From positions 1 through 23,516 of the IMG/VR virus record IMGVR_UViG_3300037493_000586: 23,516 nucleotides of DNA; one strand, written 5' to 3'. The stretch is from a virus. The translations under genes were made by a program, and so were the position numbers. Positions 4,401-19,461 of this stretch are shown here, one piece after another (position 1 is the first letter of the stretch; each line of letters starts with the position of its first letter). Under the pieces are notes generated by a model. It was not told the DNA's origin. It was given only the letters and a program-made list of their open reading frames with translations, and made no database searches.

Positions 4401-5561
4401 ATGTTCAAACGGACTACTGCAATCAATAAACTTCTAAAACTAACCAAGAGAAAAAGGGTAGTTCAAGGGGGAACGAGTGCAGGAAAAACCTTTGGCATAC
4501 TTCCGATATTGATTGACTATGCAACCAAGAACGCCAAGAGCGAGATAAGTGTAGTAAGTGAAACAATTCCCCATTTGCGTAGAGGTGCAATCAAAGACTT
4601 TCTTAAGATAATGGATTGGACGGGGCGTTATATCGATACTAATTGGAATCGAACTTTACTAACTTACACATTTGCGAACGGTTCTTTTATTGAGTTCTTT
4701 AGCGCAGACCAAGAAGCCAAACTTAGAGGAGCAAGAAGAAACATTCTTTATGTTAACGAGGCGAACAACTTATCCTTTGAAGCTTACCATCAACTAAGCA
4801 TAAGAACCTCACATCACATATGGTTAGACTTTAACCCGACCGCAGAGTTTTGGGTACACACCGAAGTATTAAAAGAAGAAGACTCGGAGTTGATTATTCT
4901 CAACTATAAAGACAATGAGACTTTAAGTGAGTCTATTATTAAGGACATTGAATCAGCAAAGGAGAAAGCCAAGACATCAGCATATTGGGAGAATTGGTAT
5001 AAGGTCTACGGACTCGGAGAACTTGGAGCGGTGCAAGGAACTATATTTAGTAACTGGAGTACAATAGACACCATCCCGAACGATGCAAGACTTTTAGGCA
5101 TAGGATTAGACTTTGGCTATTCAGTCGATCCAACGGCTTGTATTGGGATTTACAAGTACAATGACAGTTACATCCTGCATGAGTTGATATATCAAAAGGA
5201 ACTATCTAATAAAAACATATTTGATTTGATAAAGTCAGAGCCGACAATGGTCATATGTGACTCAGCAGAACCCAAATCAATAGCAGAACTACAAAGCTAC
5301 GGTCTTAAGTGTATGGGTGCTTTAAAAGGCAAGGATTCAATCTTGCACGGGATTCAATTGATTCAACAACAAAGCTTACTAATAACCAAACACTCAACTA
5401 ACCTAATCAAAGAACTGAGAGGTTATGTTTGGGCAACTGACCGAGACAACAAACCAACAGGCAACCCCGTTGAAATAAACAATCACTTAATGGATGCCAT
5501 GCGATATGGCTTCACTCACATTATACAACAACCAGGCTTAGGAACATATAGAATAAGATGA
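4401..5561 (+). CDS. terL: Terminase large subunit (ATPase and nuclease)
   Basis: 386 residues with both domains of a packaging motor, PBSX/Terminase_3-like. ATPase: Walker A 'GGTSAGKT' (23-30), Walker B 'ILYVNEAN' (115-122) with catalytic Glu120, and a likely coupling segment near 'LDFNPT' (142-147). Nuclease (RNase H fold): acidic residues in 'GIGLDFGY' (Asp237), 'MVICDSAEPKS' (Asp287) and 'HLMDAMRYG' (Asp365). Role: it pumps DNA into the prohead through the portal and cuts the concatemer. The length is normal to slightly short for the family. Its stop overlaps the next gene (ATGA). Unlike most phages the portal gene does not follow; it lies at 16143. Confidence 0.96.
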   Translation: MFKRTTAINKLLKLTKRKRVVQGGTSAGKTFGILPILIDYATKNAKSEISVVSETIPHLRRGAIKDFLKIMDWTGRYIDTNWNRTLLTYTFANGSFIEFFSADQEAKLRGARRNILYVNEANNLSFEAYHQLSIRTSHHIWLDFNPTAEFWVHTEVLKEEDSELIILNYKDNETLSESIIKDIESAKEKAKTSAYWENWYKVYGLGELGAVQGTIFSNWSTIDTIPNDARLLGIGLDFGYSVDPTACIGIYKYNDSYILHELIYQKELSNKNIFDLIKSEPTMVICDSAEPKSIAELQSYGLKCMGALKGKDSILHGIQLIQQQSLLITKHSTNLIKELRGYVWATDRDNKPTGNPVEINNHLMDAMRYGFTHIIQQPGLGTYRIR

Positions 5562-6190
5562 ACATAAAACAATACCAAGGAATCTACAACGCTATTAAGT
5601 TAGGCGGAGACGATGAAATAAGAACGGCATACAATGTGATGTCAGTTTTAACGGGAAAGTCAATTGGCGAATACCGAAAGATGAAATGGCTTGACTTTGT
5701 AAAAGAGCAGGAAGCTTTAGAGATTCCCGACATCACTTCTTTTCCTGATGCTTGGGTAACCGAGTTTGAGGTTAAGGGTGAAAAGTACTTTGTCAATCAG
5801 TATATAACCGATTGGAATACCGAACAGTTTATTTCCATGTCCTCTTTGACAAAGGAGAAAGAAGCCATCGTAGACAATCTGCATTTAATCTTAGCGACAT
5901 TATGCTATAAAGACAAAGACGAAGATGTTCAAATGACTGAGTTTAATCGACGGGCTGAATTATTCAGAGATCATTTAGACGTGGATGTTGCTTATCCGAT
6001 AGGGTTTTTTTTTGCACTTCTTTTAGTGAAATTGTCGGAGACTATCCAGTCCTCTTCAACAAAGAAAAAGACCAAGAAGAAGAAGAGCAAGAGTCGGATT
6101 GGTTCTCTAATAAGTGGTCTTGGTATGCGACAATTGATAAACTATTTGCGAAAGAAGATAGGAGCAAGTTTCCGTTCTATTACAAAATGA
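5558..6190 (+). CDS. Tail-assembly-chaperone-like protein, zero-frame product
   Basis: 210 residues in the zero frame. The first about 152 residues look like a real globular domain ('SIGEYRKMKWLDFV', 'FEVKGEKYFVN', 'NRRAELFRDHLDVDVAYPIGFFF'). After the T9 run at 6005-6013 the zero frame turns into a lysine/serine-rich tail ending in 'RSITK', which looks like chance translation, while the -1 frame continues sensibly to 6258. The natural product therefore seems to need a -1 shift, giving about 233 residues. Placement before tail genes, and knowledge that tail chaperones (lambda gpG/gpGT type) use -1 frameshifting, suggest a tail chaperone. The sequence itself does not name it, and a lost T in the assembly is the main alternative. 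Confidence 0.6.
   Translation: MNIKQYQGIYNAIKLGGDDEIRTAYNVMSVLTGKSIGEYRKMKWLDFVKEQEALEIPDITSFPDAWVTEFEVKGEKYFVNQYITDWNTEQFISMSSLTKEKEAIVDNLHLILATLCYKDKDEDVQMTEFNRRAELFRDHLDVDVAYPIGFFFALLLVKLSETIQSSSTKKKTKKKKSKSRIGSLISGLGMRQLINYLRKKIGASFRSITK
6005..6013 (+). promoter_or_regulatory. T9 slippery run, candidate -1 frameshift site
   Basis: Nine T's read in the zero frame as GGG TTT TTT TTT GCA. This contains the canonical heptamer T TTT TTT, on which both tRNAs can re-pair after slipping back one base. The downstream -1 frame is open to a TGA at 6256-6258 that overlaps the next ATG. I did not find an obvious stable pseudoknot by eye. RNA polymerase slippage on T9 could give the same result. Confidence 0.6.
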
Positions 6191-6258
6191 ACGCTTATGA
6201 CTTCTTGAACCATCTATGTTACTTGAAAGATAAAACCGATAACCAACCAAAGAAATGA
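6013..6258 (+). CDS. -1 frame extension of the chaperone-like gene
   Basis: Joined after the T9 run, this frame adds 81 residues. It includes 'GDYPVLFNKEKDQEEEEQ', then 'NKWSWYATIDKLFAKEDRSK' and 'FYYKMNAYDFLNHLCYLKDK', with an acidic linker followed by an aromatic-rich helical domain. Two facts support it. The composition is protein-like, unlike the overlapping zero-frame tail. Its TGA (6256-6258) forms an ATGA overlap with the next gene at 6255, as at 1652, 1846, 3757, 5558, 21005 and 21840. It has no sensible start of its own, so it should be made only as a fusion with the upstream 152 residues. Confidence 0.65.
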   Translation, partial: CTSFSEIVGDYPVLFNKEKDQEEEEQESDWFSNKWSWYATIDKLFAKEDRSKFPFYYKMNAYDFLNHLCYLKDKTDNQPKK

Positions 6259-6851
6259 AACTAAGTGATGAGATATTAGACAAGTGTGCGGATGTCCTAT
6301 TAGAATGGGGCAATAAGAACGCCGAGCAAATGAGAGTCTTCTTAAGGCAAAGACTAAAACAAAAACAAACTGAATCTAACTTAGCGCAGAGCATTCAAAC
6401 CAAAGGCGCAATGGTCAAAGGCGATGTTGTGACAATGACAATCGACCTAAACGATTACTGGATGTTTGTAGATTTAGGAGTCAAGGGTTTAAAAAATCGC
6501 TCAGCCTCAGGAGTGCCGACTAAGACTTATACAAATAAAGACTTTCCAGGTGGGTTCTCATTTAAAAATATGGCAACACCGCCTCAAATGATTAGTAACT
6601 TACAAGACTACATCGCAAGGAAAGGTATACCCGTAAGGACAAGCAAGAGTCAAAGTGGAGCTGAGGTAATTAAAAATAGTTTTACAATGGCTCAATCAAT
6701 GGCGGATGCAATCAAGATGAAAGGTATTGACGGCACTCAGTTCTATTCAGATACATTTAACGATGAATCATACCGAGAGTTAACCGAACAACTTTCAAAG
6801 GTAATCGGTCAAGAAGTAGAGTTCAGATTAATAACCGAATTTAAGAAGTAG
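6255..6851 (+). CDS. HK97 gp10-like tail completion / virion protein
   Basis: 198 residues. The pattern 'LNDYWMFVDLGVKGLKN' (about 68-84), then 'ATPPQMISNLQDYIARKGIPVR' (about 110-131), then 'AQSMADAIKMKGIDGTQFY' (about 150-168) matches what I know of HK97 gp10-type proteins: a beta strand with a conserved 'vDyG', a helix ending 'rKGI', and a late 'i...Gi....f'. Such proteins complete the tail or the head-tail joint. It couples by ATGA to the -1 frame of the preceding gene. Family assignment is by motif order only; 'structural protein' is safer than the exact joint position. Confidence 0.6.
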   Translation: MKLSDEILDKCADVLLEWGNKNAEQMRVFLRQRLKQKQTESNLAQSIQTKGAMVKGDVVTMTIDLNDYWMFVDLGVKGLKNRSASGVPTKTYTNKDFPGGFSFKNMATPPQMISNLQDYIARKGIPVRTSKSQSGAEVIKNSFTMAQSMADAIKMKGIDGTQFYSDTFNDESYRELTEQLSKVIGQEVEFRLITEFKK

Positions 6852-8207: not shown

Positions 8208-11113
8208 TGAGAAATGAACTTGTAATAGGTGGATATAGCATAGACACCATTGAAGACTTAGACATCAACATCACTAAAGAAGTCTATAACATAGACGATC
8301 CGAGCAAAAGACAAAGTGACTTTAGTAAGTCGGTCGACATACCTGGAAGCAAGGCGAATGATTTTGTATTCAAGTCTTTGTTTGATGTTTCCTTTTCAAT
8401 CCGTAACTCCGACCAACTCAACCCCGACTTCAACCCAAGCAAGAAGGCAACTTGTATTTACTACCAAGACACGCTGCAACAAATAAGCGGTTATTGTCAG
8501 CTCAACGAGATTAAGATATTAAACAATGACCAAGTAACTTATTCGATAACTATCTACGGAAAGAACATAGACATCTTTAGTAAGCTAACAGACAAGACTT
8601 TAAATGACCTTACAACTTTAGGGACTGCGACTTGGAATGATACCGAGATAGTAAACTCTTGGACTGCGACATTTAATCCTACAATTAAACTGACTTATCC
8701 GATGTTAGATAGGGGAGTTAGTAAGTATGGAGCTAATGGTGATGGAGGTTCAAACCTTAGTTATAATTTTAACGCCTTTAAACCGTTTCTTTATGTAGGT
8801 CATATTTTTAACGCCATCTTTGCTGAGGCTGGAGTGTCTATAGAGGTGTCATCTTTTTTTAATACTGCACAATGGCAAAAGTTAATTCTTGAATGCGATG
8901 TCGCTAAATTTAGAAAAGAACAAGCTTTAATTGATGCAAGTATAGTGAAGGCTACAAGGTCAACAACCCAAACTTTATCTTTAGTATCAAGCGCAAATGC
9001 CTCGGACTACAGTTTAATTTATGACAAAGTACTTCAGTTTAACATAACAACAACCGATCCTTTAACCCAATATAACGCAACTACTGGCACATTCACTAAA
9101 TTAAACTCAGGTTACACAAACTTTGAAGCTAACTTTACTGTAGAAATAAATAAAGCAAGTGTTGGGGATGGTGGGGGTAAATTGTTTTTCTATATTATTC
9201 GCAAAAGAGGTTCAAGTTATGACCTAATAGGAGAGCATGGGGAATATATTGCTACAAATACTACTACCGATTATCTATTTAGAGTAGGCAGAAATCAAGT
9301 ATATCTTGAGGCAGGGGATGAAGTAAGAGTATGTTCAGCTAATTATCTTAAAAATGGTACATTCCAAAACAATTTAATTACTTCTTTATTCTTAAAAAAT
9401 AGTACAAATGATTTTAGGCAATTTGAAGATGGTCAAATAAGCTACAACCAAACATTTGATATTGCAAGAACGCTTCCTGCATTAAAACAAACGGACTTCT
9501 TAATGGCAATCTTTAAGATGTTTAATCTTTACATGAGTCCGATTTATGAAACGGGTGTAGTAATTGAGCCGAGAGATACTTACTTTACAAATGATATTGT
9601 TGATTGGACTGACTTGTTAGACACATCTAAAGACTTTACTATTAAGCCTCAGGGACTACTTGAAAATAAAGAGTTAGTCTTTACATACGCTGACAATGGC
9701 GATGACTACAATAGAGACTTTAAACAGTCAACTTCTTTTAACTATGGTTATAGAGATTTAATCTTCGACAACGAGTTTGTAAAAGAAACTAAAAAAGTAG
9801 AGATACCTTTTTGTTTAATTCCTTTAAAAAAGGATGACGATCAAAATGTTATGATGCGAACCGTATTTGATGGTATGGCAATGGAGAAAAGTCCTAAACC
9901 TATCATTGCTTATTTTGGTGGCATGAAGTCAGGGCGTTTAAGGTATTGGAATTTTAACAATACAACTGCTACCGACTATACAACTTATCCATTCGCTGGA
10001 CACATCGATGACTTAACCGCCCCTAATTATGACCTTGCGTTTGATGTTCAAGACTTCTACTATTATCTAACTCCCAATGCAAATGGAGTTACCACAACCG
10101 ACAATAATCTTTACAATCAATTTCATAAATCACAATGGGAACAAATAGGCAATAAAGATTCAAAACTTATTGAAGCTTACTTTAAACTTAGACCAAATGA
10201 CATAGCTAATTTAGATTTTAGAAAGACTTATTGGATTAAAGACAATGCTTATCGACTTTTGACTGTTCAAGATTACAACCCTAACGGAGATTCAACAACC
10301 TTATGTAAACTATTAAAGTTCGCATATCAATCCGTTTTTGTTCCTACGATTACAACGGCAAACGGGGGCAATGGACAAGGAGAGAAAGACGGTGGCTACA
10401 ACACAACCTCAGGAGTAATTAAGAAAGGCATCCTTGCAACGGGTGGCAATGTCATAAACGATAATACTGTCGGCATAGTTGTGACGGGCAAAGGGAATAA
10501 CTTAGGGGGCGATAACTCAAATGTAATGATTGCAGGGGATAACAACATTATCTTACCAGGCATTACCGATGTGATGTTAATTAACTCAAGCAATTTAACC
10601 ATTGCAGAAAGTCATGTTACCTACATTGATGGGATTCAATACACGGCTTCTAAGAAGTACGGAGCGTTTCACGATGAAACCATTCAAAATGTCGCACTCA
10701 TTAACACAAATTATGAAATCACTTTAACAAATACCGATTTAAGTAACGGAGTTTCTTTAGGTGCGCCAAGTTCAAGAATAGTCTTTGACAATTCAGGGAT
10801 ATATAATATTACTTTTAGCATTCAGTTAGTGAATGAATCAGCGCAAATACAAGATGCAAATATTTTTTTAAGAAAAAACGGGACTAATTTGACTCAATCC
10901 AATAGTCATCTTTCAATGCTGGAAAAACATGGGAGCAAAAATGGTGGGGCTATTGTAACGGTTAATTTCTTATTGTCAATGAGTGCAAATGATTATATCG
11001 AATTAGTTTGGAACACAACCTCAACGGATGTTAAAATTGAAACTATTCCTTTAATCGTAACTCCAAGTACTCCTGCAACCCCAAGTGTAATTATCACAAT
11101 ACAACAAATTTAA
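8207..11113 (+). CDS. Tail hub/fibre protein with C-terminal C1q/TNF-like domain
   Basis: 968 residues. The N-terminus 'ELVIGGYSIDTIEDLDINITKE' then 'KRQSDFSKSVDIPGSKANDFVF' (about 35-56) is a signature I associate with the tail-hub proteins of Bacteroidota phages, followed by a Tal-like body. Around 735-815 runs a repetitive Gly/Asn/Val-rich stretch ('IVVTGKGNNLGGDNSNVMIAG') like a short beta-helix. From about 813 ('KYGAFHDETIQ') to the end, 'FDNSGIYNITFSIQLVNESA', 'FLRKNGTNLTQSNSH' and 'DYIELVWN' fit a C1q/TNF-like jelly roll, a common trimeric receptor-binding fold. Probable role: joins tail tip to receptor. I see no catalytic residues. Confidence 0.75.
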   Translation: MRNELVIGGYSIDTIEDLDINITKEVYNIDDPSKRQSDFSKSVDIPGSKANDFVFKSLFDVSFSIRNSDQLNPDFNPSKKATCIYYQDTLQQISGYCQLNEIKILNNDQVTYSITIYGKNIDIFSKLTDKTLNDLTTLGTATWNDTEIVNSWTATFNPTIKLTYPMLDRGVSKYGANGDGGSNLSYNFNAFKPFLYVGHIFNAIFAEAGVSIEVSSFFNTAQWQKLILECDVAKFRKEQALIDASIVKATRSTTQTLSLVSSANASDYSLIYDKVLQFNITTTDPLTQYNATTGTFTKLNSGYTNFEANFTVEINKASVGDGGGKLFFYIIRKRGSSYDLIGEHGEYIATNTTTDYLFRVGRNQVYLEAGDEVRVCSANYLKNGTFQNNLITSLFLKNSTNDFRQFEDGQISYNQTFDIARTLPALKQTDFLMAIFKMFNLYMSPIYETGVVIEPRDTYFTNDIVDWTDLLDTSKDFTIKPQGLLENKELVFTYADNGDDYNRDFKQSTSFNYGYRDLIFDNEFVKETKKVEIPFCLIPLKKDDDQNVMMRTVFDGMAMEKSPKPIIAYFGGMKSGRLRYWNFNNTTATDYTTYPFAGHIDDLTAPNYDLAFDVQDFYYYLTPNANGVTTTDNNLYNQFHKSQWEQIGNKDSKLIEAYFKLRPNDIANLDFRKTYWIKDNAYRLLTVQDYNPNGDSTTLCKLLKFAYQSVFVPTITTANGGNGQGEKDGGYNTTSGVIKKGILATGGNVINDNTVGIVVTGKGNNLGGDNSNVMIAGDNNIILPGITDVMLINSSNLTIAESHVTYIDGIQYTASKKYGAFHDETIQNVALINTNYEITLTNTDLSNGVSLGAPSSRIVFDNSGIYNITFSIQLVNESAQIQDANIFLRKNGTNLTQSNSHLSMLEKHGSKNGGAIVTVNFLLSMSANDYIELVWNTTSTDVKIETIPLIVTPSTPATPSVIITIQQI

Positions 11114-11115
11114 AA

Positions 11116-12987
11116 ATGGCAAAAACTAAAATAGAAGTCGACCTGGTCATCAAAGGTGGCGAAAGCGTTGAACAAGTCGAAAACAAAACCAAGAGTTTAA
11201 AGACTCAGCTAAAAGAAATGAAGACTTTATTGGCTTCAGGAACTTTAGATAATGAAGCATTTAAAAAATTATCACAAGAGGCAGGACAACTACAAGACCA
11301 CATTGCCGATGTTAATCAACAAGTAAATAACCTCGCTTCAGATAGTAGAAGACTTGACGGTCTTATTGGAATAACTCAAGGTATAGTCGGGGGGTTTGCT
11401 GCCGTTCAAGGTATTACCGCTTTAGTAGGGGATGAAAACGAAGACTTGCAGAAGACAATGGTCAAGCTTCAAGGAGCAATGTCAGCTCTTGCAGGAGTTC
11501 AAGAGATCCAAAATGCACTACAAAAAGAAAGTACATTTATGATGGGAATTGCAGACCTTAAAGCGAAGGCATTATCCGTTTCAACAAGACTATATGCATT
11601 CGCAACTGGTGGAGCGACTACGGCAACCAATGCTCTTAGAATAGCACTAATTGGTTTAACTACGGCAGGGATAGGAATTGCAATTGTTGTTCTTATGAAG
11701 TATGTTGAAGCATTGAATAGACAAAAGGAAGTGGAGAAAGAAAGATTAAAATCTTTAAACGAATACAATGACGAACTTATTAAAAATAGTGTAGACACAA
11801 AGATTCAGACAAATAGCATTATACAATTACAAACAATTCTTAATGACAATAATAAAACATTAGCAGAAAAGAAAACTGTTTATAAAGAATTACAAACTTT
11901 AATCCCGTCACTTACTGAGTACACATACGAACAAGCCAAAGCAGAGGGTGTATTAAACGAAGCGATAACTAATGAGATAGCATTAATTGGGTTAAGAGCT
12001 AAGGCAACCGCACTTGAAAATTATGTAGTCAAGGAAGAGGAAAAGAAACTTGCTCAAGAACAAATTTCAAATGCAATTAAGCAAGTAAATGATTTATCAA
12101 AAATAAATAAATTAAAGTCAGAGGGAAATTATGTTACTGAGTTAAGCACTAAAAATATCGCCAAGTCATTAACTCCATTGGAACAACTTGCAAAGGTTAA
12201 CCAAGATATTATCGACTTACAAACAAAGCAAAATATAATTAAAGAAAAGGGCGAGAAAATAAGTGTAGACAAACCAAAGATAAATAAAGAAACTGATGCG
12301 GAGAGAGATGCAAGAGTTAAGAAATTAATTGCAGAACAAGAAGCAAGAGATAAGGAACAAGCAATATTGCTTGAAGAAGATAAGGTAGATAGGTTTGCAC
12401 AAATTAGGGCGGTTGATACTGAAAATATTATAAAAGATTCTCAAAGCAAATTATTTGCATTAGGGGAATATAATAGAGAGGTTTTGAATGCAGAGCAAAC
12501 TTTAGTGGATGCAAAACGAAACGCTTTAGAAACTGGCTTTAATATTGCTAATCAATTTACGGGTAAGAATAAAGCTTTAGCCGATACTTTATTTGCAATC
12601 CAAAAAGGTGTCGCTATTGCTCAAATTGTAATTGATACACAAAAAGAAATTGCAGGATATTATTCAAATCCAACTTGGAAGCTATTGCCTGACGGTGGTT
12701 TGTCTTTAGCATCCGCCGCAAGTGCAGGAGCAAAGATTAGAGCGGCTACAAGTATCGCTTCTATTGGAGCGACAACAGTCGGAAAGTTTATGGGTGGCGG
12801 TAGTGGTTCGGTTGGTGGCTCAACGGGTGGTGGTGGTTCGGTTTCAAGTCAACCGCCGAGAATGGATAAGTTTGAAAGCAATCGCCCTCCAATGAATCCA
12901 AATCAAAGAGTTTATGTTTTAGAAAAAGACATAACCGATTCTCAAGGCAGAGTTGCCAAGATAAGACATAACGCAACATTGATATAA
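11116..12987 (+). CDS. Tail tape measure protein
   Basis: 623 residues with tape-measure features. There is an N-terminal coiled coil (about 15-80, e.g. 'NKTKSLKTQLKEMKTLLASG'), an alanine/glycine-rich hydrophobic centre ('GIVGGFAAVQGITALVG', then 'TTATNALRIALIGLTTAG' to 'IAIVVLMKYV', about 85-198), long helical coiled coils (about 200-460), and a Gly/Ser-rich linker ('GGGSGSVGGSTGGGGS', about 556-571) before a short C-terminal domain. Role: sets tail length and is ejected with DNA. At about 1.5 angstrom per residue it predicts a tail near 90 nm. It begins 2 bases after the hub stop. The centre could be the part that crosses the inner membrane. Confidence 0.88.
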   Translation: MAKTKIEVDLVIKGGESVEQVENKTKSLKTQLKEMKTLLASGTLDNEAFKKLSQEAGQLQDHIADVNQQVNNLASDSRRLDGLIGITQGIVGGFAAVQGITALVGDENEDLQKTMVKLQGAMSALAGVQEIQNALQKESTFMMGIADLKAKALSVSTRLYAFATGGATTATNALRIALIGLTTAGIGIAIVVLMKYVEALNRQKEVEKERLKSLNEYNDELIKNSVDTKIQTNSIIQLQTILNDNNKTLAEKKTVYKELQTLIPSLTEYTYEQAKAEGVLNEAITNEIALIGLRAKATALENYVVKEEEKKLAQEQISNAIKQVNDLSKINKLKSEGNYVTELSTKNIAKSLTPLEQLAKVNQDIIDLQTKQNIIKEKGEKISVDKPKINKETDAERDARVKKLIAEQEARDKEQAILLEEDKVDRFAQIRAVDTENIIKDSQSKLFALGEYNREVLNAEQTLVDAKRNALETGFNIANQFTGKNKALADTLFAIQKGVAIAQIVIDTQKEIAGYYSNPTWKLLPDGGLSLASAASAGAKIRAATSIASIGATTVGKFMGGGSGSVGGSTGGGGSVSSQPPRMDKFESNRPPMNPNQRVYVLEKDITDSQGRVAKIRHNATLI

Positions 12988-15165: not shown

Positions 15166-15681
15166 ATGGCTTGTTTACTATCAACTGGATTCACATTGGA
15201 CTGCCGAGATAGTATTGGCGGAGTCGATGAAGTTTACATCGGAGAATTAGAGTATTTGAACACTGCTACTTTCGCAAGTTCAGCGGGTGCGGTTACTGTA
15301 ATGGCAATGACGGGTGGCAAGAAGTTCTACAAATATGAACTTCGCAGAAACACCGCAGAGGCTAAAGCAGACAACGCAGGTGAGGTTACTTCAGGAAGTG
15401 GTTACATTATGCAGTCAGTTGAATTTTCTTTAGATAAGTTCGATGTTGCTAAACGTAACGAGATTAGAGTTCTTGCTCAAAAACCTTTAATGTTTATCGT
15501 TAAAGATAAAAACGGTTTGTTTAGTTTATACGGTTCTGAGAATGGTCTTGACCTTTCTACGGGAACGGCAGGAACTGGCAAAGCAGCGAGTGACCTAAAC
15601 GGATTTGTTTTGACATTTACAGGCGAAGAGAAGACTTACCCATTGGGCGTGTCTCAAGCAATTGTAACTTCATTAATCTAA
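15166..15681 (+). CDS. Probable major tail tube (or other abundant virion) protein
   Basis: 171 residues, starting 2 bases after the capsid stop. It is mostly beta, with 'GFTLDCRDSIGGVDEVYIGEL' at the start, 'GKKFYKYELRRNTAEAKADN' in the middle, and 'LYGSENGLDLSTGTAGTGKA' leading to 'DLNGFVLTFTGEEKTYPLG' near the end. The closing 'ng..ltf.g.e' pattern is like tail tube proteins, and this protein resembles one found after the capsid gene in Bacteroidota phages. Alternatives are a capsid decoration or head-fibre protein. A strong terminator follows within 20 bases, so capsid and this protein share the end of one transcript. Confidence 0.5.
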   Translation: MACLLSTGFTLDCRDSIGGVDEVYIGELEYLNTATFASSAGAVTVMAMTGGKKFYKYELRRNTAEAKADNAGEVTSGSGYIMQSVEFSLDKFDVAKRNEIRVLAQKPLMFIVKDKNGLFSLYGSENGLDLSTGTAGTGKAASDLNGFVLTFTGEEKTYPLGVSQAIVTSLI

Positions 15682-15698
15682 GAAATAATAATTAAATT

Positions 15699-15730
15699 AA
15701 AGGGAGGCTTTAGGGCTTCCCTTTTTTTTT
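15699..15730 (+). terminator. Strong intrinsic terminator after the capsid module
   Basis: AGGGAGGC (15701-15708) pairs with GCTTCCCT (15715-15722) with one G-T pair and a six-base loop, extended by two A-T pairs outside, and runs into nine T's (15722-15730). This is the clearest terminator in the window. Its T-run overlaps the TTG of the next promoter (15729-15731). Confidence 0.9.
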
Positions 15731-15763: not shown

Positions 15764-16156
15764 ATGGTTAGACTTAATTTAGGAAGCAATGTGGTTGTAT
15801 TGACTTTATCCGAAAAGGTAACTATTGCAACGCCTAAGTTTTTATTCGAGTTTATAAATAATCAGACTCAACAAAAGTACTATTGTATTGCAAGTGATAC
15901 GAGCCTTTATACTGATAGATATAATAAATTTACCATTGTGGTTAAGACTACAACGCCGAGTCCTTTAATTGGCGAAATTCAAATCCCTTTAGGGGATGAA
16001 TACACCTACAATGTTTACGAGCAAGTGAGTTCAACAAATTTAGTCCCTACGGGTTTGACGGTAGTTGAAAATGGACTAATGACCTATGATAAGACTCTGA
16101 CTTCAAGAATTGAAAACGAATCTAACCTAACAAGAAAAGCCTATGAGCCAAACTAA
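15764..16156 (+). CDS. Small beta-rich virion-associated protein
   Basis: 130 residues, first gene after the terminator. Seen: 'NLGSNVVVLTLSEKVTIATP', 'FLFEFINNQTQQKYYCIASD', 'LYTDRYNKFTIVV' and 'IGEIQIPLGDEYTYNVYEQ', a run of alternating beta strands with no catalytic motif. I recall a similar small protein in Bacteroidota phage virion clusters, but no function. It overlaps the portal gene by 14 bases in another frame. This suggests coupling and a role at the head, such as neck or fibre attachment; that is inference. Confidence 0.6.
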   Translation: MVRLNLGSNVVVLTLSEKVTIATPKFLFEFINNQTQQKYYCIASDTSLYTDRYNKFTIVVKTTTPSPLIGEIQIPLGDEYTYNVYEQVSSTNLVPTGLTVVENGLMTYDKTLTSRIENESNLTRKAYEPN

Positions 16157-18116
16157 TAACTATTCATTCAGCAAGTTTCCCCTTTACGCTAATGAAACGC
16201 CCATTTTTCGCAAACAACCTAACATGGTTTATGTGCCTTATGGAAAGAACAATGATTACTCAGACTATTTATCTTATCTTTATAACAATAGCGGAATACA
16301 CGGTGCGATAATAAAAGGTAAGGCTACTTATATTTTTGGAAAAGGTTTTAAAATTAAAGCCGATTGGAACGGCGATAAAATAGGTTTACAAAAAACTTTA
16401 AACTCGATTAATAATTCTCAGACGGCTGATGAATTAGCAAGAAAGAAAATCTTTGAACGTACTCTTTACGGAGGTTGTGCTTACTTAATTGAATGGGATG
16501 TTTTTGGAAATATTAAATCAGTAAAGCTTCAACCGTTCAACACGATTAGAACTTGCGTAGATAAGTCGGAGTTTTACATATCTAAGGAATGGACAAGAGA
16601 ACAAAGCACTAATTCTAAATGGAAAAAGAGCAACGGCAGACTTCCTGAAGATACGGTAACTCTTCCAGCGTTTAACCCTTTAAAAAGAGAGGGCAAACAA
16701 ATCCTTTACCTAATAGACGATAATCCTGCAAGTGACATATACCCTTTACCTGAGTACAATAGCGGTGCTACACCAATAGAAACGGACATAGAGTGCAACT
16801 TCTTCCAACTTAACAATGTTAAGACGGGATTCTCAGCAGGAACAATGGTCACTTTCTTTAACGGAACGGCTATCAATGACGAAGAACAACTCGAAATTGA
16901 ACACGCTTTTAAAAGTAAAGCGAGTGGAACGGACAATGCAGGAGAAATACTTTTAAACTTTCAGAATCCAAACACAACCGCACCGACCATCAGTCCTTTA
17001 AGAAGTAACGATTTAGATAAACAATACGAGCAATTAAGCAAAGACACTATAAATAAGATTCTTTATTCTCATAGAGTTTCTAACGGTTTACTTTTCGGCA
17101 TAAAGACTCCTGGCGAACTTGGTGGAGGTCGGTCTGAATTTGATTTGTCTTGGGAACACTTCTCCAATACTTATGTAAAGCCAAAGCAACAAGAAGAAGA
17201 AGAGGACATGAATTATATTCTAAGTCTTTATGGATTTATAGGTAACCCCGTTGAATTGACCTCACTCGATCCAATTGGAATTGAATTGACCTCAGAAGTA
17301 ATAAGCAGAACTATTGATGCGGACTCATTTGCTGAGATGGTGTATGCAAGATTAGGAATTGAAAAACCTAACCTTGTAAAGAAGGATGACATCTTAACTA
17401 TTATTAATTCTAATCCTATCATTGCTCCAAAGATTCTTGAAAGTTTAACAACTAACGAGATTAGACAATTAATAAGCTTACCTGCAATTTTGGGGGGCGA
17501 TGATTTAAAACCGAGCGCATTCTCTACGGAAGAAGATTTTATCTTGTCTAAGTTTTTAGAAATTGGCGAGCCTGCCGAGAATTACACTATAGTTAAATCT
17601 TGTTTTGTTTATTCGGACTCCGATAATTTTGCAAAGGAAGATGACGATAAATTAATAGAGGCAATAAAGAAAGGTAAAAAGATTAAGATTTCTGACTTGG
17701 CTAAGAAATTAGGACTAAGCGAAAGTGAAATCTATAAAAGTTTAGAACGCTTAAATAAGAGTAATACTTTATTAGTTGACTATACGGAATCTAATGGAGA
17801 GGTAAGCATCACTCCGAAAACAATCCAAGAGCCAGAGACTCAAGAAATAGGATTAGAGACTAAATGGAGATACACAACTAATTTAAGCCCTCAACTTTTA
17901 AGTACTTCAAGACAGTTTTGTAAAGATTTGATTAATGCAAAACAATTATACTCAAGAGAGCAAATAAATAATATGCAAAATGAAGCAAATACAAGAGGTT
18001 ATAATGAAGATGTATTTAAATATAAGGGCGGATGGCAGACAATTAAAGGGACAGTCACTCATATTCCAAGTTGTCGGCATTTTTGGGAGAGCGTGTTAGT
18101 AAGTAAGAAAAAATAA
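16143..18116 (+). CDS. Portal protein with HTH-like and MuF-like C-terminal extension
   Basis: 657 residues, long for a portal. About 1-450 fits portals: 'YLYNNSGIHGAIIKGKATYIFG' (45-66), the 'RKKIFERTLYGGCAYLIEWD' core (100-119), 'NVKTGFSAGTMVTFFNG' (225-241), and 'INKILYSHRVSNGLLFGIKTP' (303-323). Role: dodecameric ring at the capsid vertex through which DNA passes. About 500-560, 'DDKLIEAIKKGKKIKISDLAKKLGLSESEIYKSLERL', is a winged-HTH-like segment. The tail 580-657 has 'STSRQFCKDLI', 'YSREQINNM', 'GGW' and 'IPSCRHFW', like the end of Mu gpF-type head morphogenesis domains. A portal fused to these parts is unusual in general, though I recall long portals in Bacteroidota phages. Confidence 0.85.
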   Translation: MSQTNNYSFSKFPLYANETPIFRKQPNMVYVPYGKNNDYSDYLSYLYNNSGIHGAIIKGKATYIFGKGFKIKADWNGDKIGLQKTLNSINNSQTADELARKKIFERTLYGGCAYLIEWDVFGNIKSVKLQPFNTIRTCVDKSEFYISKEWTREQSTNSKWKKSNGRLPEDTVTLPAFNPLKREGKQILYLIDDNPASDIYPLPEYNSGATPIETDIECNFFQLNNVKTGFSAGTMVTFFNGTAINDEEQLEIEHAFKSKASGTDNAGEILLNFQNPNTTAPTISPLRSNDLDKQYEQLSKDTINKILYSHRVSNGLLFGIKTPGELGGGRSEFDLSWEHFSNTYVKPKQQEEEEDMNYILSLYGFIGNPVELTSLDPIGIELTSEVISRTIDADSFAEMVYARLGIEKPNLVKKDDILTIINSNPIIAPKILESLTTNEIRQLISLPAILGGDDLKPSAFSTEEDFILSKFLEIGEPAENYTIVKSCFVYSDSDNFAKEDDDKLIEAIKKGKKIKISDLAKKLGLSESEIYKSLERLNKSNTLLVDYTESNGEVSITPKTIQEPETQEIGLETKWRYTTNLSPQLLSTSRQFCKDLINAKQLYSREQINNMQNEANTRGYNEDVFKYKGGWQTIKGTVTHIPSCRHFWESVLVSKKK

Positions 18117-18751: not shown

Positions 18752-19176
18752 TAACTAAGAATACCTTATATCAGTACTTCAAAGATTTTGCCGACAATCA
18801 TCTGCAAATTAAAGACTATGGTTATGGAGACCTATGGGAAATTAGTTCGTCTACGGCTACGCAATACCCTTTATTTTGGGTATCTCCTCAACCATCTTCA
18901 ATTAGTGGTAATGATATTATTTATAACTTTAACATTTTAATAGGCGATAGGCTTGAGGATGGCGATGGCAATAAAGTAGAAGTTGAGTCGGACACTTTCC
19001 AAATTGGATTAGATTTATTTGCAACCCTTAATCTTCACACCGAATTAGACCTTGACAAGAGTAGCACATTTACCCCATTTATACACGACTTTAAAGATAG
19101 AATTGCAGGACATTTAATTACCTTGAGCGTATCAGCTCCATTTAATTACGATGAATGCGCAATACCCCAAATATAA
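18748..19176 (+). CDS. Tail terminator / tail completion candidate
   Basis: 142 residues. Visible features are 'YPLFWVSPQPSSISGNDIIYNFNILIGDRLEDG', a pair of strands, then 'VESDTFQIGLDLFATLNLH' (helix) and 'FTPFIHDFKDRIAGHLITLSVSAP' (strand pair). The order helix, beta hairpin, helix, strand, and the place after the connector, fit tail terminator or neck proteins. I have seen close relatives in Bacteroidota phage clusters without a firm function. No enzyme motif, no signal peptide. The call rests largely on position. Confidence 0.5.
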   Translation: MITKNTLYQYFKDFADNHLQIKDYGYGDLWEISSSTATQYPLFWVSPQPSSISGNDIIYNFNILIGDRLEDGDGNKVEVESDTFQIGLDLFATLNLHTELDLDKSSTFTPFIHDFKDRIAGHLITLSVSAPFNYDECAIPQI

Positions 19177-19194
19177 AAAAAAATAAAAAAAAAT

Positions 19195-19461
19195 ATGACA
19201 AGTTTAGAAAGAATTTCAGGAGCGGTAGGGAGTCAATTAGTAACTGGCACTTCCACAGTAACAAGAGTATTTAGTGCTTTAAGCATCAACGCTGATGCGG
19301 TAATAGCCGAAATATACTATGACAACGATTTAACCACAAACCAAGTGACGGCATTGGGAATCAACGCACAAACATTGACGGCAGGATCGATTATGTTTTG
19401 CAAGAACGATGTCCAATTCGGCAGAATTAAATTAACTTCAGGTTCGGTATTTATTCATTAA
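19195..19461 (+). CDS. Small beta-rich protein, possible fibre or capsid accessory
   Basis: 88 residues of Ser/Thr/Ala-rich beta segments: 'SGAVGSQLVTGTSTVTRVFSAL', 'AVIAEIYYDNDLT', 'TLTAGSIMFCKNDVQFGRIKLTSGSVFIH'. It is preceded by an A-run leader (about 19175-19193) with no Shine-Dalgarno sequence. One base separates it from the lectin-like gene. The composition fits a virion surface or fibre-attached protein, but no family is recognised. Confidence 0.55.
   Translation: MTSLERISGAVGSQLVTGTSTVTRVFSALSINADAVIAEIYYDNDLTTNQVTALGINAQTLTAGSIMFCKNDVQFGRIKLTSGSVFIH

What the first reader, a model, noticed from the sequence alone, without database searches (positions are those of the whole stretch)
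5558..6258. Candidate programmed -1 frameshift on a T9 run in a tail-chaperone-like gene
Seen: after GGG TTT TTT TTT GCA (6002-6016) the zero frame turns into a Lys/Ser-rich tail ending at 6190, while the -1 frame stays open with protein-like sequence to a TGA at 6256-6258 that overlaps the next ATG (6255) in the ATGA form used across this genome. Known: tail assembly chaperones are classic -1 frameshift genes. Inference: a 233-residue fusion is the functional or extended product. The gene is also far from the usual place, following terL rather than just before the tape measure.
Basis: partly seen in the sequence, partly recalled or inferred. Interest (0 to 1): 0.75.

Follow-up and report, generated by a model that had tools for sequence, protein, structure and literature searches.

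The report
T9 slippage site in tail-chaperone-like gene
In this phage and in hundreds of related uncultured ones, a gene that probably helps build the virus tail makes a short and a long protein by slipping one base on an unbroken run of nine (rarely ten) T's, and the pattern suggests that the enzyme copying DNA into RNA slips, not the ribosome as in phage lambda.

Summary
In detail: GGG-T9-GCA at 6002-6016, a zero frame ending at 6190, and an open -1 frame to 6258. It is not a sequencing error. The same junction was found in 33 other IMG/VR contigs of the window's clade and about 185 further distinct relatives, including isolated phages P12024S and P12024L. Downstream of the run the -1 frame is under purifying selection (pN/pS 0.15-0.5; the zero-frame overlap gives 1.4 in the window's clade), so the 233-residue fusion is a real product. 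Among about 218 distinct family members the run is T9 (about 210) or T10 (8), never shorter; the single T8 lies at a contig end. T9 occurs in all three codon phases, with at least five phase switches on the tree. A ribosomal -1 shift needs only T_TTT_TTT, which leaves flanking T's free, yet flanking T's always add up to two or three. No downstream RNA structure or Shine-Dalgarno-like motif was found. This favours transcriptional slippage (T9 to T10 in mRNA) over ribosomal frameshifting. Tail-chaperone identity is supported by split-gene design, context and single-frame relatives, but not by a significant homology match. I found no paper describing transcriptional slippage in a phage tail chaperone. 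RNA evidence is missing.

The parts
4401..5561 (+). terminase large subunit, gene directly upstream (overlaps the start of the next gene)
   Evidence: PHROG phrog_2 E 3e-35
5558..6190 (+). zero-frame ORF (210 aa): conserved N-domain (149 aa) + FFF + a 58-residue zero-frame extension that is not constrained as protein
   Evidence: zero-frame overlap pN/pS 1.41 versus 0.107 upstream; AlphaFold N-domain pLDDT 84.5
6005..6013 (+). T9 run, proposed RNA-polymerase slippage site; the heptamer T_TTT_TTT at 6007-6013 would be the ribosomal alternative
6013..6258 (+). -1-frame tail (81 aa + TGA), joined to the N-domain after a one-base slip; conserved KW(G/S)W...I...A..D...K motif
   Evidence: alignment A2; pN/pS 0.147; no start codon ahead of the motif in 23 of 26 clade members
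6255..6851 (+). next gene, ATG overlaps the -1 stop (ATGA); neck or tail-completion-like by position, no family match
11116..12987 (+). candidate tape measure protein (623 aa), about 5 kb downstream; assignment by length, position and weak PHROG matches to very long proteins of unknown function
   Evidence: phrog_21917 E 2e-13; no Pfam match
15166..15681 (+). candidate tail tube protein by position and size
   Evidence: phrog_19091 E 3e-21, function unknown

Best explanation
The gene after terL encodes a two-product, tail-assembly-chaperone-like protein. The DNA template gives mRNA with U9, which yields the short product (N-domain plus an unimportant tail). During elongation the RNA polymerase of the infected cell slips on the nine-base run and adds one U in a fraction of transcripts; U10 mRNA is read into the -1 ORF and yields the 233-residue N-plus-tail fusion. 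By analogy with lambda gpG/gpGT, the short form would coat the tape measure and the rarer fusion would recruit tail tube subunits. Shown here: the conserved frame change, purifying selection on the -1 tail, and conservation of run length independent of codon phase. Inferred: that the slip is transcriptional, the ratio of products, and the chaperone role.
For: (1) Of 164 relatives fetched by N-domain similarity and complete across the junction, 162 are T9, 1 T10 and 1 T8, the T8 about 35 nt from a contig end. A distant group gave 41 distinct T9 and 7 T10. A pattern scan that accepted T7 or more found 116 T9 and 3 T10 in the family and no T7 or T8; its one T8 match is unrelated. (2) T9 sits in all three codon phases, with at least 5 phase changes forced by supported branches. 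T's outside the heptamer T_TTT_TTT are split 2+0, 1+1 or 0+2 and total two in 170 of 171 rows and three in one; in the distant group they are 2+0 (41) or 1+2 (7). In the close pair L149/L151 the run slid two bases with matching changes at both ends. (3) pN/pS of the -1 tail is 0.15, 0.51 and 0.29 in three clades; the zero-frame overlap gives 1.41, 0.91 and 0.79. (4) No excess RNA structure downstream (mean z -0.03 against -0.08 for controls) and no recurrent upstream motif. (5) Long T runs elsewhere in the contigs are depleted (T8: 10 seen, 22 expected; T10 or longer: 0 seen, about 4 expected), while T9 is enriched at this site. (6) Published: nine A or T is the length at which selection against slippage becomes evident in many bacteria, and 9A/9T runs are used by IS elements (PMC1088944); the RNA:DNA hybrid is nine nucleotides (PMC5574713); transcriptional slippage in Shigella mxiE occurs at 20-30% (PMC4256274). 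(7) Single-frame relatives of the tail exist after terL in other phages.
Against: No RNA data: the U10 transcript has not been seen. The window still contains a perfect ribosomal heptamer, so ribosomal slippage, alone or in addition, is not excluded. Part of the flanking-T conservation could come from hydrophobic residues, since a T at the second codon position means a hydrophobic residue. No significant sequence or fold match to a known tail chaperone was found. The gene is not next to the tape measure gene.
Confidence: 0.66

Rival explanations
1. Ordinary programmed -1 ribosomal frameshifting on T_TTT_TTT, as in lambda G/GT, with no role for RNA polymerase.
For: A perfect heptamer lies in the right phase in the window and in every family member. 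Tail chaperone genes are classic ribosomal frameshift genes (PMC5009743).
Against: Only seven T's are needed, yet the flanking T's always total two or three whichever side they lie on. No T7 or T8 variants in about 218 distinct members. No downstream structure or SD-like element.
Confidence: 0.17
2. The -1 tail is a separate gene reached by its own start or by termination-reinitiation, and no fusion is made.
For: P12024S/L annotators and PHROGs treat the two parts as separate genes (phrog_32199 and phrog_38404). In the window the zero-frame stop overlaps an ATG in the -1 frame (ATGA at 6187-6190).
Against: The overlap between the run and the zero-frame stop is already constrained in the -1 frame (pN/pS 0.20). 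23 of 26 window-clade members have no start codon ahead of the W.W motif. Reinitiation at 6187 would make only 23 residues.
Confidence: 0.03
3. T9 is a sequencing or assembly error, or the gene is a decayed single-frame gene.
For: Homopolymers are error-prone, and T10 would give one continuous frame.
Against: The same T9 in 33 of 33 clade members, about 210 distinct relatives and two isolate genomes; strong purifying selection on both parts.
Confidence: 0.01
4. The slippage is real, but the protein is not a tail assembly chaperone; for example a terminase- or neck-associated protein needed in two lengths.
For: It lies directly after terL; no significant homology to any known chaperone; about 5 kb from the tape-measure candidate.
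Against: Split two-length design, position at the head of the tail genes, and HK97 gp13 chaperone (2ob9) and several annotated chaperones among the weak fold matches outside the family.
Confidence: 0.13

Closest known systems
Phage lambda G/GT tail assembly chaperone (programmed -1 ribosomal frameshift; conserved among long-tailed phages)
   Same: Short N-domain product plus a -1-frame extension from one gene in a tail-gene operon; neither part resembles other proteins by sequence.
   Different: Lambda uses a ribosomal slippery site near the end of G, shortly before the tape measure gene (general knowledge and PMC5009743). Here an unbroken T9/T10 is conserved across codon phases, the zero-frame extension runs 23-91 codons, and the gene follows terL.
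Shigella mxiE and related type III secretion genes (transcriptional slippage)
   Same: Homopolymer slip gives a longer product and affects the adjacent downstream gene; short and long forms from one gene (PMC5009743, PMC4256274).
   Different: Bacterial secretion genes, not phage morphogenesis; slippage is proven there and inferred here.
9A/9T transposase genes of IS elements, and Thermus dnaX (programmed transcriptional realignment)
   Same: Run of nine as the slip site (PMC1088944).
   Different: No relation in protein or element; A9 in dnaX.
Nonlabens/Persicivirga phages P12024S and P12024L, genes 38 and 39 (P12024S numbering)
   Same: True relatives: after terL, T9 in the DNA, -1 tail with the KW.W motif.
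   Different: Annotated as two hypothetical genes (phrog_32199, phrog_38404); zero-frame extension only 28 codons.

Membership tests
Lambda-type G/GT frameshifted tail assembly chaperone | Upstream ORF plus overlapping downstream ORF in the -1 frame, both under selection | tested here: met
Lambda-type G/GT frameshifted tail assembly chaperone | Gene lies between tail tube and tape measure genes | tested here: not met
   Follows terL; the tape-measure candidate is about 5 kb downstream and the tail-tube candidate further on. TCUEAP1 also has a short gene after terL, several genes before its annotated tape measure gene.
Lambda-type G/GT frameshifted tail assembly chaperone | Ribosomal slippery heptamer X_XXY_YYZ, often with a stimulator | tested here: inconclusive
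   T_TTT_TTT present; no structure or SD-like motif; conservation extends beyond the heptamer
Lambda-type G/GT frameshifted tail assembly chaperone | Sequence or fold homology to known chaperones | tested here: inconclusive
   No Pfam or PDB sequence match. Foldseek: 2ob9 HK97 chaperone ranks 3rd of 350,542 chains but E 3.5; annotated chaperones at E 0.3-1.3.
Lambda-type G/GT frameshifted tail assembly chaperone | Needed for tail assembly, binds tape measure and tail tube, absent from virion | not testable with these tools
   needs experiment
Programmed transcriptional realignment (slippage) site | Conserved A/T homopolymer long enough to slip (about nine or more) | tested here: met
Programmed transcriptional realignment (slippage) site | Run conserved as a run, independent of codon phase and encoded residues | tested here: met
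   All three phases, at least 5 switches
Programmed transcriptional realignment (slippage) site | Runs of this length avoided elsewhere in the same genomes | tested here: met
   32 of 35 T9 at this site; T10 or longer none
Programmed transcriptional realignment (slippage) site | Heterogeneous mRNA (U8/U9/U10) at the site | not testable with these tools
   no transcript data available

The most novel reading that the evidence does not exclude
A large, mostly uncultured group of probable Bacteroidota siphophages sets the ratio of its two tail-chaperone forms by RNA polymerase slippage on T9/T10, a mechanistic replacement of lambda-type ribosomal frameshifting in a conserved phage assembly step. 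In one subgroup the zero-frame extension is also kept open over 65-91 codons, possibly as a second functional C-terminus.
Probability: 0.6. Interest if true: 0.75.

Novelty: new variant of a known kind. Interest (0 to 1): 0.62.

Why it matters
Tail-chaperone recoding is the textbook case of a ribosomal frameshift conserved across phages while sequences diverge. If this group reaches the same two-product outcome through the RNA polymerase, it is the ratio of products that is under selection, not the mechanism. It would also be a natural readout of slippage by Bacteroidota RNA polymerase, testable in cultured phages P12024S/L. It also corrects annotation: two 'hypothetical' PHROG families (32199 and 38404) would be one gene, and hundreds of viral contigs carry a mis-split or truncated gene.

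Tried and rejected
Sequencing error: rejected. Separate downstream gene or reinitiation: rejected for the window's clade. Pfam, PHROGs and PDB sequence searches gave no function. tblastn in phage records gave no match for the window, group B or group C proteins; only an L087 query reached P12024S/L. Genome-contig scans: the N-domain profile found no relative; the TerL scan gave only distant Firmicutes-type TerL, so no bacterial host was placed. F. psychrophilum phage Fpv5 (TerL 55% identical) has no such gene after terL and no T9 gene. RNA structure search downstream: nothing. A test of whether selection keeps the zero frame open was negative in the window's clade (P 0.43) but positive in group C (P about 0.003).

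Full report
OBSERVATION. The window is an IMG/VR virus record. The sequence shows GGG at 6002-6004, nine T's at 6005-6013 and GCA at 6014-6016. The zero frame gives 210 residues to 6190; the -1 frame gives 81 residues from 6013 to a TGA at 6256-6258, which overlaps the ATG of the next gene at 6255.

IS IT REAL? The N-domain found 33 other IMG/VR contigs at 77-98% identity. All carry GGGTTTTTTTTTGCACTTCTTT without exception and a zero-frame product of 208-210 residues. A whole-collection pattern scan that allowed 6 to 13 bases between the flanks returned 33 matches, all with nine. A sequencing error is excluded. Genes directly after terL in more distant relatives and loci from profile searches carry the same design. 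So do two isolated phages, P12024S and P12024L, where the parts are annotated as two hypothetical genes and fall in two PHROG families (32199 and 38404). The N-domain profiles of the window/B groups and of group C match each other (hhalign E 4e-8, probability 95). The C-tails align across groups with the KW.W motif.

WHICH FRAME IS CODING? In the window's clade (26 distinct sequences) pN/pS is 0.107 in the N-domain, 0.147 in the whole -1 tail, 0.199 in the overlap read in -1, and 1.41 in the overlap read in zero frame. Groups C and B give 0.51 and 0.29 for the tail and 0.91 and 0.79 for the zero-frame overlap. The -1 tail is therefore the selected protein. In 23 of 26 clade members the -1 frame has no start codon ahead of the W.W motif, so it is reached only by changing frame. 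Single-frame genes with a related tail occur after terL in other contigs (L078/L079; tail hhalign E 1.5e-6, probability 90), and weakly in the Elizabethkingia phage TCUEAP1 (E 2.5e-4, probability 43), which supports the fused form as a functional protein.

HOW IS THE FRAME CHANGED? Both mechanisms give the same protein, so the evidence is evolutionary. A ribosomal -1 shift needs T_TTT_TTT; T's outside that heptamer would be free. Run lengths: 162 T9, 1 T10 and 1 T8 (near a contig end) among 164 loci fetched by N-domain similarity; 41 T9 and 7 T10 among distinct members of the L087-like group; 116 T9, 3 T10 and no T7 or T8 among family matches of a pattern that accepts seven or more (the script's strict motif flagged 98 of the T9 cases, and I counted the other 18 by eye from their LEFR...GWF-type tails). 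Distinct members together number about 218: about 210 T9 and 8 T10. The run lies in all three codon phases, and the tree needs at least five phase changes on supported branches (deep placements of long branches are unsure). The T's outside the heptamer are 2+0, 1+1 or 0+2 and sum to two in 170 of 171 rows (three in one), and to two or three in the distant group. In the sister pair L149/L151 the run slid by two bases, gaining at one end what it lost at the other. If left and right flanks were free and independent, a sum of exactly two would have a chance below about 0.19 per independent lineage whatever the T frequency (my rough bound), so six or more lineages make chance unlikely. Hydrophobic-residue constraint can explain part of this but not the left-right compensation. 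TTC is used for 23-34% of Phe codons in the N-domains of the three large groups but never inside the run, which both models predict. There is no excess RNA structure downstream and no common upstream motif. T9 elsewhere is rare, and runs of ten or more T's are absent from the 340 kb examined. These traits match published transcriptional slippage sites: nine as threshold length (PMC1088944), a nine-nucleotide RNA:DNA hybrid (PMC5574713), and efficiencies of 15-55% in the Shigella type III genes (PMC4256274). I put transcriptional slippage at about 0.8 given a real frame change, and ribosomal slippage at about 0.17.

WHAT IS THE PROTEIN? The N-domain is predicted with confidence (pLDDT 84.5) and the tail poorly (64). 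Fold searches give no significant outside match. HK97 tail assembly chaperone 2ob9 ranks third in the PDB at a non-significant E of 3.5; in BFVD, below the family's own members, annotated tail assembly chaperones appear at E 0.3-1.3. With the two-product design, the place at the head of the tail genes and the single-frame relatives, a tail-assembly-chaperone role is the best inference (about 0.8), not a demonstrated membership.

HOST. Isolated relatives infect Bacteroidota: P12024S/L on Persicivirga carry the gene itself, and TerL relatives occur in Flavobacterium, Elizabethkingia, Phocaeicola, Bacteroides and Cellulophaga phages. The window's own host is not placed.

NOVELTY. Full-text searches for transcriptional slippage with tail chaperones, phage tails or Bacteroidetes phages gave reviews and tools but no such case; the library lacks most subscription journals, so this is not proof of absence. 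I rate it a new variant of a known kind: the lambda G/GT outcome, probably by a different machine.

Noticed in passing
L110-L189 (group C loci), zero frame after the T9: The zero-frame extension stays open for 65-91 codons, longer than codon shuffles that keep the -1 protein allow (P about 0.003); possible second functional C-terminus or selection against early stops.
   Followed up: partly
L306:10047-10927 (Flavobacterium phage 6H, gp10, - strand): A fold relative of the N-domain is annotated as 191 aa while its PHROG profile (25418) is 293 aa; the unannotated gap 10047-10352 holds a -1-frame ORF, but there is no T9. Another kind of split or a broken copy.
   Followed up: partly
window 15699-15730: Clean intrinsic terminator (11-bp stem, then T's) after the tail-tube-like gene 15166-15681; its U-tract is the only other T9 in the window.
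   Followed up: no
window 19175-19193: Two A9 runs separated by one T at the boundary between genes ending at 19176 and starting at 19195; could add slippage or affect initiation.
   Followed up: no
L498, L501, L506, L524, L538, L540, L541: A subset of the L087-like group uses T10 in phase 1 with the same -1 relation; a natural length variant for testing slippage rate against run length.
   Followed up: partly
L206 near its 3' end: Single T8 case about 35 nt from a contig end; probably an assembly error.
   Followed up: no
window 16143-18116: Portal-like protein (phrog_33693) with a weak C-terminal helix-turn-helix match at residues 503-541, unusual for a portal.
   Followed up: no
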